From Phycisphaerae bacterium (GTDB lineage Bacteria > Planctomycetota > Phycisphaerae > UBA1845): a DNA stretch of 64,000 bases. A model generated the notes under the pieces. The model searched no databases. It was not told the DNA's origin and worked only from the letters and a program-made list of their open reading frames with translations. The stretch spans positions 62,001 through 126,000 of the forward strand of contig JABWBH010000013.1 of assembly GCA_013360585.1 (NCBI GenBank). The letters run 5' to 3'. The number at the start of each line of letters is the position of its first letter. The stretch's first letter is position 1. The translations under genes and the position numbers were made by a program. Below are positions 29,091 to 37,712 of the stretch, piece after piece.

Positions 29091-31355
29091 CTACGGGCAG
29101 GAAGCCGTCCGGTTAAAGGCGTCGCAGCCGTCGGGAAACGCAAGTTCGACCGAGTGATCTCCGGCGGTGAAGCAGCAGGACGAGAAGCTCGCGACATCGC
29201 CGTCGAGCGTCGCCTCGACCTCGATCGATCCGTCGATGAGCACGCGGAGGGTCTGCCCCCCGAAATTTGAGTTGAACATGCGCACCTTGCCTTTGATCGC
29301 CCCCGTGTCGCGGCATCGGGCGGTGAGCTTCCTGACGTCGTCGCAGGTCGGGTCGCCGATCGATCCGCCTTCGGATACCCGGCCCGCGATGACAAGAGCG
29401 AAGCCCTGCGTTCCGCCCTGATTGACGGCGGACGCGATCACCCTCACCGTCCAGGTTCCCAGGACGGGCGACGCGACATGCACCTGCTCGACGTTGTTCC
29501 GGGCGTCCCTGGTCCCGCCGGGCGCGGACTGTCCGTTCTCGAAGTAGTTGCCGCGGTAGCGCGTGCCGTCCGGGCGCTCGACCTCAAGATCGAGGTCGTT
29601 GATGTACGCGGGGTTCGCCCCGGCGGACGCCGCAGGCTCGGTCCAGACGAGCGTCACGCGGAGCGACTCGGCGGATCCGAGCACCTCGAACGTGGAGACT
29701 TCGGTCTGCCCCGTGCTCAGACCCGAAGCGTTCCGCCGATCCGTCACGATCAGGCGGCGATCTTCGCCGGACAGATGAAGCGCGTTGTCCGCCAGCACGC
29801 GCCCCCAGCCTTCCGTGTCGCTGGGGTAGCCCGTGACGCCGGTCATGTCCACGCAGGCGTTCAACAGCGTCGCCTTGACCAGCGCCGCGGTGGGCGTGAA
29901 CCCGTCCTGCGAACGTCGCGACCCGCTCGGGTAGTACCCGTCGGTGTAATACTGACGAACCAGCATCCCGGTTCCCGCGACCGCCGGCGACGCCATCGAC
30001 GTCCCCGACAACGATGCCGTCGAGCACGCCGTCCCGCTCGACGACACCGTTCCGCAGCCGGGAGCGTAGATTTCCGGCTTGCGTCGGCCGTCGTTGGTCG
30101 GTCCGCGACCGCCGGAGCAATGCCGATGCTGGTTCGGCGCGTCGCTGCTCGCCCCGACCGCCAGCAGGTTCTTCGCATTCTCGGGGTTGCGCAGCGTGCT
30201 CTGGTTGGTGACGGCGAACAACACGAGGCTGTCCTCGTTGGTGTACGAGAAGTCGTCAATGCCGCGGCAGAGGCTGTCGTAGGATGTCGTGCTGTCGTTG
30301 CCCCAACTGTTGGTGTGCAGGCGGGCGCCCTGGTTGTGGTGCGTCTGAAGGCGGCTTTTGATCGCGGATTCGCTGAACGAGGGGATCGTGTTGTAACAGA
30401 GCTTGCCGAGGTAGGCGACGCCGCGCGTGTTCGCGTCGGTCCCGGCGTCCCCGACCGCCGTGCCGGCGACATGCGTCCCGTGCTGGTCGTAGCCCGTGCT
30501 GGTGTTGTAAGCCTGAATCTTGCGATGATCGTTGCCGAACGCCGCGTCGTCGAAGAAGGAGCAGTGATTCGGCGTGACGCGCCCGTCGAGGATGCCGACG
30601 ATCTGTCCCGCGCCGCGGAGACCGGCGTCGTAAAGCGGGTACACGTCGGTCAGATTGCTCTGCACGATCCAGCGGTTGCTGTTGTTGCGCAGCGTCAGCT
30701 CGGGCGCCTCCTCGACGTACTGCACTGACGCCTCCATCGCCAGCAGCGCCAACTGCGCCTCAGGATACAGCACCTCGACCTGACCCTGTTCCGCAACGAT
30801 CTCCGTGTTGAGCACCTGCGCACCCGCCGCCGCAAGCTCGTTCATCCCCTGCGCGAGATCCACGCCGTGGAAGAGTGTGACGACAAGGTTCAGCCAGCCG
30901 GACTTCTCCAACGCGATCCGATCCTCCGACTGATACGGCGCCAGCCGCAACCCGATCGACGGATCCAGCTTCCACGCCTCCTGCCACCGACCTACCCAGC
31001 GAACGAACCCCAGCGCGGCCACGTCGGCGGGTTTCGCCTGCGTCAGATCGGCGAGGTAAGCGTGCGACGGAATATAAGCGTGCAGGATGACGCCGGCGGC
31101 CTGAAGCGCCGCGGAACGTTCCCGGGTGAGCGGACCGTCAAGCTGAATGACGTTGCCCGGCGCGGCAGGGAAGGATTCAGCTGGGGGGGTGAGCAGGTTC
31201 GGCAGACCGGCGGTCTCGATCGAGCCGCCGGTCAGATACAGCACGCCCGGTTCAAGCGTCTCCGGCAGCGGTGCCTGCTGCGCCGAAGCTCCCGAACTCC
31301 AACCCGCAACCACAAATCCCGCCCACGCCAGCCGAACAAAGGTTCCGCGGCTCAT
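29091..31355 (-). CDS. Secreted subtilisin-like serine protease (S8)
   Basis: A 754-residue exported subtilase. A signal peptide (LAWAGFVVAGWSSGASAQQ) precedes a propeptide-like region to about residue 230. The catalytic triad is Asp257 (VGILDGRV), His292 (DQHGTHVAGT) and Ser453 (SLSGTSMASP), with oxyanion Asn384 in AVTNQS. A beta-sandwich of about 150 residues follows (LRVTLVWTEPAAS, YINDLDLEVERPDG), as in Kp43-type proteases. A last Cys-bearing module begins at CDDVRKLTARC, like that of the exported protein at 15465-16319. ATG 31355 has a strong AGGGAGCAGG site. Likely extracellular or periplasmic nutrient proteolysis. Confidence 0.92.
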   Translation of the reverse strand: MSRGTFVRLAWAGFVVAGWSSGASAQQAPLPETLEPGVLYLTGGSIETAGLPNLLTPPAESFPAAPGNVIQLDGPLTRERSAALQAAGVILHAYIPSHAYLADLTQAKPADVAALGFVRWVGRWQEAWKLDPSIGLRLAPYQSEDRIALEKSGWLNLVVTLFHGVDLAQGMNELAAAGAQVLNTEIVAEQGQVEVLYPEAQLALLAMEASVQYVEEAPELTLRNNSNRWIVQSNLTDVYPLYDAGLRGAGQIVGILDGRVTPNHCSFFDDAAFGNDHRKIQAYNTSTGYDQHGTHVAGTAVGDAGTDANTRGVAYLGKLCYNTIPSFSESAIKSRLQTHHNQGARLHTNSWGNDSTTSYDSLCRGIDDFSYTNEDSLVLFAVTNQSTLRNPENAKNLLAVGASSDAPNQHRHCSGGRGPTNDGRRKPEIYAPGCGTVSSSGTACSTASLSGTSMASPAVAGTGMLVRQYYTDGYYPSGSRRSQDGFTPTAALVKATLLNACVDMTGVTGYPSDTEGWGRVLADNALHLSGEDRRLIVTDRRNASGLSTGQTEVSTFEVLGSAESLRVTLVWTEPAASAGANPAYINDLDLEVERPDGTRYRGNYFENGQSAPGGTRDARNNVEQVHVASPVLGTWTVRVIASAVNQGGTQGFALVIAGRVSEGGSIGDPTCDDVRKLTARCRDTGAIKGKVRMFNSNFGGQTLRVLIDGSIEVEATLDGDVASFSSCCFTAGDHSVELAFPDGCDAFNRTASCP

Positions 31356-33650: not shown

Positions 33651-35564
33651 ATGATGACCGGAATCACCGGATTATTCGACACTTCGGACTTTCCGCCGCG
33701 CTGGACCTGCGGAACCTGGACGCCCCTGCACGGGTGGGTCCACATCGTGGCCGACGCCGCGATCTGGGGGGCGTACACGATGATCCCCGCGGTGCTGGCG
33801 TACTTCATTCTGAAGCGCCGGGATGTCCCGTTTCCGCGCATCTTCTGGTTGTTCTGCCTGTTCATTCTCTCCTGCGGCACGAACCACCTGATGGAGTCGG
33901 CGATTTTCTGGTGGCCGGCATACCGTTTTGCGGCCTTGCTGAAGGTGCTGACGGCGATTGCGTCGTGGGGGACGGTCCTCGCGCTGATCCCGACCGTGCC
34001 GAAGGCGCTGAGCCTTCCCGGGCTGGCGAAGATCAACAGCGATCTGACCCGCGAGATAAAGGAACGACGACGGATTGAAGCGGCCCAGCGCGCCGGAGAG
34101 TCGCAGCTTCGGGCGATTTTTGATCACGCCAGCGACGCCATCATCACCGTCGGAGAGCGGGGCGACATCACCGCGTTCAACCGGGCCGCCGAGCGCCTTT
34201 TCGGATACGAAGCGTCCGCCATCCTCGGCAAGTCCATCTGGGGCCTTCTCGGTCCCGGAGACGGAAACGCCCCCGCGGAAGCGTGGTGGAAGCAGCTTCA
34301 AGGTGCCGGCGCGCCGGCGCAGGACGGTCGTCTGACGGCGACGGGCTGGCGCCGCGACGGGCATGCGGTTCCCGTCGAGCTGTCCGTCGGCGACTTCGAG
34401 ATCCTATCCGCGAAGCACTATGTCGCCATCCTCCGCGACGTGCGCGAGCGGAAGCGCGCGGAGGATCGCTTCCGCATCGCCGTCGAGGCGGCGCCCAGCG
34501 CCACGGTGATGACCGACGCCAAGGGGCGCATTCTCCTGATCAACGCTCAGACCGAGGCGATGTTCGGGTACCGGCGCGATGAACTGCTCGGGAACCTCGT
34601 CGAGACTCTCGTTCCCCGCCGCTTCCGCGATGCGCATCCGCAGTTCCGGGGCGCCTTCTTCGCCGATCCGCACGCGCGACCGATGGGCGCAGGACGCGAC
34701 CTTTACGGACTGCGCAAGGACGGCCACGAAATCCCCGTGGAAATCGGCCTCAATCCGATCAACACGGACGAAGGTCTCGTCGTGCTGGCGTCCATCGTGG
34801 ACATCACCGAGCGAAAACGTGCCGAGGCCTCGCTGCAAAGCGCCCACGATGAACTCCTCCGCCGTAACGAGGAGATGGAGCAGTTCACCTACACCGTGTC
34901 GCACGACCTGAAGTCGCCGCTGGTCAACCTTGAGGGTTTCGCCGCGTTCCTCGCCCGCGACGTCGAATCCGGGCGCACGGACCGCATCGTTGAGTTCACC
35001 GGGCACATCACCCACGCCGTCGGGAAAATGCGCGAGACGATCGACGCCCTCCTCGAGATCAGCCGCGCAGGACGGGTTTCCAGCGATGCGAAGCCCGTCC
35101 ACCTCCGCCGGCTCGTCGACGACTGGGTGGCCGCGCACACCGGGATGATTGCCCGGGCGGGCGCGAACGTCCATGTCGCGCCGGAGTCGCTGGTGATCCA
35201 ATTCGACCCGCAAAGACTTCATGAAGTCTTCGACAACCTGCTGACCAACGCCTTGAAATACGGATGCCCGTCGCCCGGCGGGCGCATCGAAGTCGGCTGG
35301 GAGCGCGGGGACGGCGAGATCCGCGTCTTCGTCCGCGACCACGGACCCGGCATCGCCCCGCGCTATCACAAGCGAATCTTTGAACTGTTCCAGCGCCTTC
35401 ATCGGCAACCAGAAGGGACGGGCGTGGGGTTAAGCCTCGTCAAGCGGGTCGTCGAGCATCATCGCGGGCGGGTCTGGGTCGAGTCGGACGAGGGCCGCGG
35501 GGCGTGTTTCTGGTTTTCTCTGCCCGCCGAGCTGGAGATCCCTGCAAAATCCGAGGTGGGATGA
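33651..35564 (+). CDS. Ethylene-receptor-like membrane sensor histidine kinase (EBD-PAS-PAS-HisKA-HATPase)
   Basis: A 637-residue sensor kinase. Residues 28-120 form three hydrophobic helices with Asp35 and Tyr42 (VADAAIWGAYTMIP), Ile45, Pro46, Ile72, Cys75 and His79 (FILSCGTNHL). Each sits exactly ten positions after the ETR1 residues needed for copper and ethylene binding (25, 32, 35, 36, 62, 65, 69). Two PAS domains follow (about 150-265 and 275-390). The kinase has the H-box SHDLKSPLVNL and ATPase boxes NLLTNALKYG, DHGPGIAP and GTGVGLSLV. GAGGAG precedes ATG 33651. The next gene's start overlaps its stop. The ligand is inferred, not shown. Confidence 0.88.
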   Translation: MMTGITGLFDTSDFPPRWTCGTWTPLHGWVHIVADAAIWGAYTMIPAVLAYFILKRRDVPFPRIFWLFCLFILSCGTNHLMESAIFWWPAYRFAALLKVLTAIASWGTVLALIPTVPKALSLPGLAKINSDLTREIKERRRIEAAQRAGESQLRAIFDHASDAIITVGERGDITAFNRAAERLFGYEASAILGKSIWGLLGPGDGNAPAEAWWKQLQGAGAPAQDGRLTATGWRRDGHAVPVELSVGDFEILSAKHYVAILRDVRERKRAEDRFRIAVEAAPSATVMTDAKGRILLINAQTEAMFGYRRDELLGNLVETLVPRRFRDAHPQFRGAFFADPHARPMGAGRDLYGLRKDGHEIPVEIGLNPINTDEGLVVLASIVDITERKRAEASLQSAHDELLRRNEEMEQFTYTVSHDLKSPLVNLEGFAAFLARDVESGRTDRIVEFTGHITHAVGKMRETIDALLEISRAGRVSSDAKPVHLRRLVDDWVAAHTGMIARAGANVHVAPESLVIQFDPQRLHEVFDNLLTNALKYGCPSPGGRIEVGWERGDGEIRVFVRDHGPGIAPRYHKRIFELFQRLHRQPEGTGVGLSLVKRVVEHHRGRVWVESDEGRGACFWFSLPAELEIPAKSEVG

Positions 35565-36037
35565 CGGCGGTTACTAACGTTTCGAAGCGGGAACTGGCGA
35601 GTTTCGGATCCTTGTCGAGGGCAACCGTTGTGAAACCCGATCTGCATCGAATCTTACTGGTCGAGGATGATGAGGGTCATGCCTTGCTGCTGCGACTGAC
35701 GCTCGCCGAGGTCGCGCCGCGGGCCTCCCTCGAGTTGATCCTCGACGGCGAGCGGGCGCTGACTCGCCTCAAGGAATCCGCATCAGGCCATCGTCCAGAC
35801 CTGATGATTCTGGACTTGAAGCTCCCTCGGCTTGACGGACATGAACTCCTCGCCGAGGTCAAATCCGACCCGAAACTCCAGAGTCTCCCGGTCCTTGTCG
35901 TCACTACGTCCACAAAACAGACCGACGCCGAACTTGCCAGTGTTTACTCTCGCGTCGCGTTCCTGAACAAACCCGTCCCCCCCGTGGAATTGCGGCGAGC
36001 GATTGAAGGACTCGGGTTCGCCTTGCAAGCAGGTTGA
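35561..36037 (+). CDS. Single-domain response regulator, Rcp1-like
   Basis: A 158-residue protein made of one receiver domain after a 25-residue leader. Acidic pocket residues are in ILLVEDDEGHALLL, the phospho-acceptor Asp is in LMILDLKLPRLDG, Thr is in VVTTST and the Lys is in VAFLNKPVPP. Such stand-alone receivers typically partner bacteriophytochrome-type kinases with the same SHDLKSPL H-box. The ATGA overlap with the kinase stop implies coupled translation, so this is its most likely phosphorylation partner. There is no output domain. Confidence 0.9.
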   Translation: MTAVTNVSKRELASFGSLSRATVVKPDLHRILLVEDDEGHALLLRLTLAEVAPRASLELILDGERALTRLKESASGHRPDLMILDLKLPRLDGHELLAEVKSDPKLQSLPVLVVTTSTKQTDAELASVYSRVAFLNKPVPPVELRRAIEGLGFALQAG

Positions 36038-36461
36038 CGGTTATGAGGACGAGGCGGAGATAGACGGGGGTCCGTTGATGGACGGTATCCCCAGAACGAC
36101 AAGCACATTTCAATCTGGGTTGACTCTCTTTCCCCGCCACCAGGCTCAGAAGATTACGTGTCTTTCATGGGTGCTCGTGCGGGTTGATCGGTCCAGAACC
36201 CACATGCGGGATAGCAATGTCAGTACGACTTTGAGCGCCTCGGGGTTTGTACTCAATTCGGCTGCGTCATTCCCTCCCTGCAACACGATAATATGATAGG
36301 TGAAGCAGCGATCCTCGTGGCCCGCGCGTTGGATGCGGCATCGCCGCACCGCCACGGCGATGCTGCGGCTCCAGTGCTCATGAATTGACGATGCGACGCC
36401 CAAGATGCGAGGCGTCCCATCGCAGACGCGAACGACGACAGGTCGAACCTGGAGGAAAAAC
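36038..36461. other. Intergenic region of lower GC before the CsrA-receiver gene
   Basis: These 424 bp hold no gene with confident support. GC content is lower than in neighbours, and a minus-strand frame of about 105 codons (36146-36463) is open but lacks family motifs. GGAGGAAAAAC at the right edge is the ribosome binding site of the next gene. Confidence 0.4.
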
Positions 36462-37058
36462 ATGCTGGTCATCGACCGACTGAGAAACACCGGAGTCTGC
36501 ATCGGAGAGCACATTCGCATTCGCGTGTTGCGCACCGGCGCGAACCGTGTGCGTCTCGGCATCGAGGCGCCGCGAAGCATCCCGGTCTTCCGGGAGGAGC
36601 TGAAACCGAAGGCGCCTGACCTGGGCGCCACGACGGAAAGAGAACAACCCTTCCGCGTCCTGGTGGTCGAAGACGATCCCAGCCACGCCGCGCTGATCGG
36701 GCTGGTCATTCAGGAGCGTCTCTCGACGTGTCTGACGGTCGCGACTTCGGGTTCGGAAGCACTGCGTCTGCTCTCGCCTGAACGCGAGGCGTCTGCGGCG
36801 CGTCCCAACCTGGTGCTGCTTGATCTGAACCTGCCGGACATGCCCGGTCTGACCGTTCTGGAGGCCATCAAGACCACGCAGGCGCTGCGAGCGCTTCCGG
36901 TGGTGGTGTTCAGCGGGCTGGAGCGCGCGGAGACCGCCCGGCAGTCGCTCGACCTGGGCGCCAACGCCTACGTTCCGAAGTCGACCTCCTTCGACGAGTT
37001 CTCACAGCGGGTCGTGCGCATCGTCGATTTCTGGAGCCAGGTGGGGCGGGTCGCGTAG
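36462..37058 (+). CDS. CsrA RNA-binding domain fused to a receiver domain
   Basis: A 198-residue fusion. Residues 1-50 align without gaps to E. coli CsrA: MLVIDRLRNTGVCIGEHI, NRVRLGIEAPRSIPVFREEL. They keep Arg6, Gly15, Val30-Arg31, Ala36-Pro37, Val42 and Arg44; Arg44 is central to GGA-motif RNA binding, while Arg7 is replaced by Leu. After a linker, residues 65-190 form a receiver with RVLVVEDDPSHAAL, phospho-acceptor Asp121 (VLLDLNLPDMPG), Ser151 and Lys173 (YVPKS). It is predicted to be a phosphorylation-tuned translational regulator. It lies in the locus of the ethylene-receptor-like kinase. GGAGG precedes the ATG. Confidence 0.9.
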   Translation: MLVIDRLRNTGVCIGEHIRIRVLRTGANRVRLGIEAPRSIPVFREELKPKAPDLGATTEREQPFRVLVVEDDPSHAALIGLVIQERLSTCLTVATSGSEALRLLSPEREASAARPNLVLLDLNLPDMPGLTVLEAIKTTQALRALPVVVFSGLERAETARQSLDLGANAYVPKSTSFDEFSQRVVRIVDFWSQVGRVA

Positions 37059-37110: not shown

Positions 37111-37182
37111 AGCCGACGGTGGGATTCGAACCCACAACCCCGGCTTTACGAAAGCCGTGCTCTACCGTTGAGCTACGTCGGC
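37111..37182 (-). tRNA. tRNA-Thr, anticodon CGU
   Basis: On the minus strand the sequence folds into a full cloverleaf: acceptor GCCGACG/CGTCGGC, D-stem GCTC/GAGC, anticodon stem CGGCT/AGCCG with loop TTCGTAA, and T-stem GTGGG/CCCAC with loop TTCGAAT. The anticodon is CGU, reading ACG (Thr). The discriminator base is U, and CCA is not encoded. Confidence 0.95.
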
Positions 37183-37200: not shown

Positions 37201-37608
37201 TTATGCAGGCGGCGGCGCGTCGTCGTCAACCAGCAGCCTGCTTACCGCCGAGAGGAGCTTTTCCATCCGAAACGGCTTGTTGATGTACGCGGCGGCCCCC
37301 AGACCCATCGCCCAGTCCTGATGCCGCCTTCCGACGTTGGCCGTAATCATGATGATGTGCGGTTTGTCCTCCTTGCGCTTCCCCGGTTTCAACTTCTCGA
37401 GGACGAGAAAACCGCTGCGCTTCGGCAGCATCGCATCCAGAATGATGAGATCGGGCGCTCCGCTTTGCGCCAAGGTCACGGCCTGCTCGCCGTCCGTCGC
37501 CACGGCAAGGGTCGCCCCGGATTCGCGCAACGCCGCCTCGATCGCGGATACGATGTCCGGATCGTCATCAACAATGAGAATTCTACGTCCGTGCAGCGAG
37601 GGTAGCAT
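37201..37608 (-). CDS. Single-domain response regulator
   Basis: A 135-residue receiver protein. Acidic pocket ILIVDDDPDIV, phospho-acceptor Asp in LIILDAMLPKRSG, Thr in IIMITANVG and Lys in AAYINKPFRME are all present. The end is Asp- and Pro-rich (VDDDAPPPA). The start at 37608 follows GGAGG at eight bases. It lies beyond the tRNA on the opposite strand from the kinase locus, so its kinase partner is unknown. There is no output domain, so it may relay phosphate or bind a target directly. Confidence 0.88.
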   Translation of the reverse strand: MLPSLHGRRILIVDDDPDIVSAIEAALRESGATLAVATDGEQAVTLAQSGAPDLIILDAMLPKRSGFLVLEKLKPGKRKEDKPHIIMITANVGRRHQDWAMGLGAAAYINKPFRMEKLLSAVSRLLVDDDAPPPA

Positions 37609-37712
37609 CCGTCCATCCTCCGGATTCAGCACCGCCGCGGGGCGTCGCGGCATCCTACTGTCCGGGGAGACTGACGGCAACGCGGCGCCGTGCCGGCGGG
37701 TGCCTCCGCTGG

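What the first reader, a model, noticed from the sequence alone, without database searches (positions are those of the whole stretch)
33651..37058. Possible ethylene-to-translation signalling module
The ethylene-receptor-like kinase, a receiver protein coupled to it by ATGA overlap, and the CsrA-receiver fusion lie in a row on one strand. A simple model is gas sensing by the kinase, phosphotransfer to the receivers, and altered mRNA binding by CsrA. No such pathway is known to me. The 424-bp gap before the fusion gene weakens the operon argument.
Basis: inference. Interest (0 to 1): 0.75.

Follow-up and report, generated by a model that had tools for sequence, protein, structure and literature searches.

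The report
Ethylene-type sensor beside receiver-fused CsrA
A bacterium carries an ethylene-receptor-like sensor with its partner protein next to a rare protein that joins an mRNA-binding regulator to a phosphorylation switch, and relatives of its order that have the second also have the first, so a gas-to-translation pathway is plausible but untested.

Summary
Kinase 33651-35564 has an ETR1_N domain with the ethylene/copper residues at the AzoEtr1 spacing; an ATGA overlap leads to a single-domain receiver (35561-36037); after 424 bp comes a real CsrA-receiver fusion (36462-37058). Kinase plus overlapping receiver is a known kind (AzoEtr1/AzoRR). Response regulators with CsrA output domains are named in print but seem rare: I found five.

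Yet in the order (114 genomes) ETR1_N occurs in 10 and the fusion in 4, all inside those 10 (p about 3e-5 by genome, 3.5e-4 by genus). A fifth fusion, in another class, has no ETR1_N. Co-inheritance fits a shared pathway but does not prove phosphotransfer.

New here: the fusions lack the CsrA helix residues known to bind FliW, present in 30-31 of 31 ordinary CsrAs of the family; a receiver sits there instead. I infer FliW control was exchanged for phosphorylation control. Sequence comparison makes the overlapping receiver, not the fusion, the kinase's clearest partner. Verdict: partly supported; new variant of a known kind.

The parts
33651..35564 (+). ETR1-type histidine kinase: ETR1_N (residues 27-122), two PAS, HisKA (H in SHDL at 417-420), HATPase_c
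   Evidence: orthologue in G011
35561..36037 (+). single-domain receiver, ATGA overlap with the kinase; the kinase's likeliest cognate receiver
36038..36461 (+). 424-bp gap, poorly conserved against G011, no terminator-like or promoter-like pattern on the + strand
36462..37058 (+). CsrA-receiver fusion: CsrA 1-49 (R6, R44 kept; FliW-contact residues absent), linker about 47-60, Rcp1-type receiver 66-184 with D121 and K173
37201..37680 (-). stand-alone receiver, convergent, beyond a tRNA (37111-37182 -); kept in G011 but probably not part of the module

Best explanation
The locus is an ETR1-type two-component pair (membrane kinase plus translationally coupled single-domain receiver) joined by a second response regulator whose output is an RNA-binding CsrA domain. 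Shown by sequence: gene content, intact kinase and receiver residues, the ethylene/copper residue pattern, the CsrA RNA-binding arginine, absence of the FliW contacts, and co-inheritance of fusion and ETR1_N within the order. Inferred: a gas, probably ethylene, changes kinase activity (about 0.5); the kinase phosphorylates mainly the coupled receiver (about 0.8) and, directly or through cross-talk, the fusion (about 0.4); phosphorylation changes how the two receivers sit on the CsrA dimer, where FliW would dock on an ordinary CsrA, and so changes mRNA binding (about 0.5). The fusion is thus a CsrA freed from FliW and put under phosphorylation control, most likely in the same pathway as the ETR kinase.
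For: Domains and catalytic residues. D35, C75, H79, K98 carry the same numbers as in AzoEtr1, which binds ethylene. Same arrangement in G011 under purifying selection. Fusion in 4 of 114 genomes of the order, all among the 10 of 114 with ETR1_N, p 3.1e-5 by genome, 3.5e-4 by genus. FliW contact residues present in 31 of 31 (I/V51) and 30 of 31 (N55) ordinary CsrAs read in the family, absent in all five fusions. Receiver of the Rcp1 type, nearest solved structures 1i3c and 1k68.
Against: Linkage found in one genus only; three of five fusions unlinked and one without ETR1_N in its genome. Six ETR1_N genomes of the order lack the fusion. The coupled receiver, not the fusion receiver, has its best matches behind the nearest kinases. 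424-bp gap. In G090 the fusion's phospho-Asp is Glu. G000 and G011 count as one event, and G086 and G090 share a family.
Confidence: 0.4

Rival explanations
1. Two independent systems. The ETR kinase signals only to its coupled receiver, as proposed for Azospirillum; the CsrA-receiver fusion serves another, unlinked kinase, and lies here by chance or by joint transfer of a block.
For: Kinase plus receiver without CsrA is the rule: 43 of 53 phylum loci have a receiver in or just behind the ETR1_N frame, 0 of 63 loci a CsrA. Three of five fusions unlinked, one genome without ETR1_N. Coupled receiver is the best match to the receivers behind the nearest kinases.
Against: All four fusions of the order fall among its 10 ETR1_N genomes, including two where the genes are not neighbours, which block transfer alone explains poorly.
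Confidence: 0.4
2. The same module, but the signal is not ethylene: UV-A/blue light, redox state or another small molecule acts on ETR1_N or on the PAS domains.
For: SynEtr1 also answers to UV-A light (PMC6682694 passages); the kinase has two PAS domains.
Against: The residue pattern needed for ethylene binding is complete and spaced as in AzoEtr1, which binds ethylene.
Confidence: 0.3
3. The receiver of the fusion is only a structural cap or dimer clamp: it blocks FliW and holds the CsrA dimer, without regulation by phosphate.
For: The G090 fusion has Glu for the phospho-Asp, and the FliW contacts are gone in all five.
Against: Asp and Lys of the active site are kept in four of five fusions; the window's receiver part is under purifying selection, dN/dS 0.15.
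Confidence: 0.15

Closest known systems
AzoEtr1 / AzoRR-etr1 of Azospirillum brasilense (PMC11819568, passages read)
   Same: ethylene-binding domain, PAS, histidine kinase; next gene a single-domain receiver whose start overlaps the kinase stop; same residue numbers D35, C75, H79, K98
   Different: one PAS instead of two (as described); no CsrA gene is mentioned beside it in the passages read
SynEtr1 - slr1213 - csiR1 of Synechocystis (PMC6682694, PMC11819568, passages read)
   Same: ETR1-type kinase with phosphotransfer to a response regulator
   Different: output is transcription of a small RNA through slr1213, not an RNA-binding response regulator
[quoted passage not shown]
   Same: receiver joined to an RNA-binding domain; CsrA is named there as such an output domain
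   Different: no example, mechanism or signal is given in that passage; here CsrA is N-terminal and lies by an ETR kinase
CsrA/FliW (PMC7829508, PMC4682653, passages read)
   Same: CsrA core with R44
   Different: helix with I/V51 and N55, the FliW contacts, is missing; a receiver follows instead
Rcp1/RcpA phytochrome receivers (1i3c, 1k68)
   Same: nearest solved receivers by sequence and fold
   Different: they are stand-alone and carry no RNA-binding domain

Membership tests
Bacterial ethylene receptor (ETR1/SynEtr1/AzoEtr1) | ETR1_N domain | tested here: met
   PF25487 114 bits, cut-off 27, profile 2-97 of 97
Bacterial ethylene receptor (ETR1/SynEtr1/AzoEtr1) | seven ethylene-binding residues | tested here: met
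   D35, Y42, I45, P46, I72, C75, H79; D, C, H named, the number seven; the other four names are recalled
Bacterial ethylene receptor (ETR1/SynEtr1/AzoEtr1) | saturable ethylene binding | not testable with these tools
   needs radioligand binding
Kinase with coupled single-domain receiver (AzoEtr1/AzoRR type) | receiver gene overlapping the kinase stop | tested here: met
   ATGA at 35561
Response regulator with CsrA output domain | receiver and CsrA in one chain | tested here: met
   both Pfam domains above cut-off; 90% identical orthologue in G011
Response regulator with CsrA output domain | phospho-accepting Asp and conserved Lys | tested here: met
   D121, K173 in the window; G090 has Glu
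Response regulator with CsrA output domain | RNA binding changed by phosphorylation | not testable with these tools
   needs biochemistry
Canonical CsrA, FliW-controlled | CsrA domain with RNA-binding R44 | tested here: met
   PF02599 55 bits; R44 in all five fusions
Canonical CsrA, FliW-controlled | NCBIfam csrA equivalog score | tested here: not met
   TIGR00202 45 bits, cut-off 70
Canonical CsrA, FliW-controlled | FliW contacts I/V51 and N55 | tested here: not met
   A51, G55 in the window; 31 and 30 of 31 ordinary CsrAs have them
Conserved three-gene ethylene-to-CsrA operon | gene order kept beyond one genus | tested here: not met
   found in G011 only; G086, G090, G737 unlinked
Conserved three-gene ethylene-to-CsrA operon | co-occurrence of fusion and ETR1_N in genomes | tested here: met
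   order: 4 of 4 fusion genomes among 10 of 114; outside the order one fusion (G737) without ETR1_N

The most novel reading that the evidence does not exclude
An ethylene receptor that reaches translation directly: ethylene alters the kinase, phosphate flows to a receiver that has replaced the FliW-docking helix of CsrA, and mRNA binding changes. That would be a gas-sensing pathway with a post-transcriptional response regulator as output, kept together by selection even where the genes have drifted apart.
Probability: 0.22. Interest if true: 0.85.

Novelty: new variant of a known kind. Interest (0 to 1): 0.5.

Why it matters
Outside the gammaproteobacteria, control of CsrA is known mainly through FliW. 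A CsrA that has lost the FliW contacts and gained a receiver is a ready-made test of direct phosphorylation control of an mRNA-binding regulator. If the ETR kinase feeds it, bacterial ethylene sensing would have a translational output, which the searches did not find in print.

Tried and rejected
Conserved operon across planctomycetes: rejected. The order was found only in G000 and G011, and their flanking genes are collinear too, so this conservation says little.

Clean empty site in a congener: not obtained. In G010 the genes that flank the module here lie on different contigs, neither with the module (DUF1559 and zinc-ribbon gene on C1, acetyl-CoA synthetase-like gene on C6). G009 (89% complete) gave no hit for either flank, so it tells nothing.

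The fusion receiver as a recent copy of the coupled receiver: not supported. It is 37-41% identical to the other fusion receivers outside the genus over 126-136 residues, and 38% to its neighbour over 89 residues only. One clade for all five fusion receivers is neither shown nor rejected (support 80/94; not recovered; AU p 0.345).

The receiver at 37201 as part of the module: unlikely (minus strand, convergent, beyond a tRNA). Promoter and terminator patterns in the gap were uninformative.

Co-variation of receiver and kinase similarity over 42 kinase-receiver pairs: fusion receiver rho 0.47 (p 0.0016), coupled receiver rho 0.23 (p 0.15). But the two pairs with the nearest kinase domains (L208, L273) hold the two best matches to the coupled receiver and only ranks 20 and 31 for the fusion receiver. 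Many loci had been chosen for likeness to the fusion and one pair appears twice (L051, L252), so this is weak either way.

Failed or flawed steps: the regular expression missed the fusions; the CsrA profile held wrongly oriented rows and was rebuilt (control: all 5 fusions found); one search read the wrong stretch; one search was out of frame; one search crashed and was repeated; the pattern read no CsrA and was corrected, where L021 of 32 loci was still not read. In one search the distance rule missed an overlapping receiver frame in L203. One search was this report in a wrong format.

Full report
What is there. The kinase (637 aa) has ETR1_N, PAS (two stretches), HisKA and HATPase_c, with intact H, N and G boxes. 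The ethylene-binding residue pattern D-Y-I-P-I-C-H plus a lysine is complete; D35, C75, H79 and K98 carry the same numbers as in AzoEtr1, which binds ethylene. The receiver starts inside the kinase's stop codon (ATGA). The fusion follows after 424 bp and has CsrA at residues 1-49 and a receiver at 66-184.

Real genes. Congener G011 (public record JAJVHU010000019.1, a Phycisphaerae MAG) has the same genes in the same order. Protein identity: kinase 578 of 637, coupled receiver 115 of 154 aligned, fusion 178 of 198 with its CsrA part 49 of 49. dN/dS: kinase 0.19 (ETR1_N part 0.07), coupled receiver 0.42, fusion 0.16. The gap is much less conserved and carries a 100-N run in G011 (all).

Distribution of the fusion. 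In the order (114 genomes) a search with the whole protein found full-length matches in G000, G011, G086 and G090. Over a class sample of 397 genomes a profile of five fusions found only the same four full-length, as did the single protein. A phylum sample of 392 gave G000 and one more, G737. One scan of genome contigs kept 80 loci; a CsrA profile run on them found CsrA in the matched frame in three, the records of G011, G086 and G090. That scan did not return G737, so it is not exhaustive. Five fusions in all; R6 and R44 are invariant; the phospho-Asp is D in four and E in G090.

Linkage. In G011 the kinase lies next to the fusion. In G086 the ETR1_N gene is on another contig, in G090 63 kb away on the same contig, and G737 has none at E up to 0.1. 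Of ETR1_N neighbourhoods other than the window and G011, 53 from the phylum sample and 10 from the order were examined (mostly 13 kb, some cut by contig ends): 0 of 63 hold a CsrA, while the same CsrA profile finds all five fusions. Receivers are common there: 31 of 53 phylum loci have a receiver in the ETR1_N frame and 20 of 53 a receiver frame just behind, 43 of 53 either. So kinase plus receiver is ordinary, and a CsrA nearby is not.

Co-occurrence. ETR1_N occurs in 10 of 114 genomes of the order (G000, G011, G053, G057, G086, G090, G097, G098, G099, G100). All four fusion genomes are among them: p 3.1e-5 by genome; by genus, 3 of 3 fusion genera among 7 of 85, p 3.5e-4. Within the family of 51 genomes both occur only in G000 and G011. 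Caveats: G000 and G011 are one event; G086 and G090 share a family; 6 ETR1_N genomes of the order lack the fusion; outside the order the one fusion found (G737) lacks ETR1_N. Many of the genomes are fragmented and incomplete.

Who is phosphorylated. The window's kinase domain is 48-49% identical to that of the G086 ETR kinase, to the kinase frame that overlaps the ETR1_N frame in G170 (L208), and to one kinase in the short locus L249 (G409), where no ETR1_N was looked for. Among 42 kinase-receiver pairs the coupled receiver's two best matches are the receivers behind the G170 and G086 kinases (86 and 83 bits), whereas the fusion receiver ranks them 20 and 31. So the coupled receiver is the clearest cognate. 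The fusion receiver is of the Rcp1 type with a C-terminal FW motif, the type that sits behind many kinases, so cross-talk or relay is possible. In G090 the ETR kinase has a different catalytic domain with receivers of its own, and there the fusion's Asp is Glu; one case, suggestive only.

CsrA without the FliW handle. In C. jejuni, FliW binding needs CsrA V51 and N55 in the first helix behind the RNA-binding site, next to R44 (PMC7829508 passages). In ordinary CsrAs of the window's family I/V51 is present in 31 of 31 and N55 in 30 of 31 read. The own genome has three CsrA matches: this fusion, one beside a FliW-like gene (named from its sequence, not by a family search) and one in an 87-aa frame. 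The fusions keep R44 but have neither contact residue (four of them also). The AlphaFold model (mean pLDDT 77.6) shows no helix there but a low-confidence linker at 47-60 leading to the receiver. Inference: the receiver stands where FliW would dock and has taken over its control. The model is a monomer; a CsrA dimer could not be modelled here.

Literature. [quoted passage not shown] Searches for 'CsrA' + 'receiver domain' + 'fusion' + 'Planctomycetes', 'CsrA domain' + 'receiver domain' and 'response regulator' + 'fused to CsrA' found nothing in the held library; 'ethylene receptor' + 'Planctomycetes' found two papers, unrelated by title. PMC12471899 (passages) lists E. coli CsrA itself as an orphan response regulator, although it has no receiver domain to my knowledge. 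[quoted passage not shown] Most subscription journals are not held.

Verdict. Observation confirmed, interpretation partly supported. The operon form of the claim fails outside one genus; the pathway form gains support from co-inheritance but has no biochemical evidence.

Noticed in passing
L035:8175-8858 (+), genome G013, same family: One open frame holds two CsrA domains in tandem, which could be a single-chain CsrA dimer.
   Followed up: no
L037:8263-8823 (-), L038:6178-6546 (-), L039:8295-8609 (+): Extra CsrA-like genes of three relatives with a short insert after the first strand region.
   Followed up: no
L067:9261-9902 (-), genome G090: CsrA-receiver fusion whose phospho-accepting Asp is Glu, in a genome whose ETR kinase has a different catalytic domain with its own receivers.
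   Followed up: partly
L208:3431-7417 (-), genome G170: ETR1_N in a short frame that overlaps a 960-aa frame with a kinase domain, then a single-domain receiver; either two genes or a frameshift.
   Followed up: no
window 29091-31355 (-): Large exported subtilisin-like protein, named from its sequence only.
   Followed up: no
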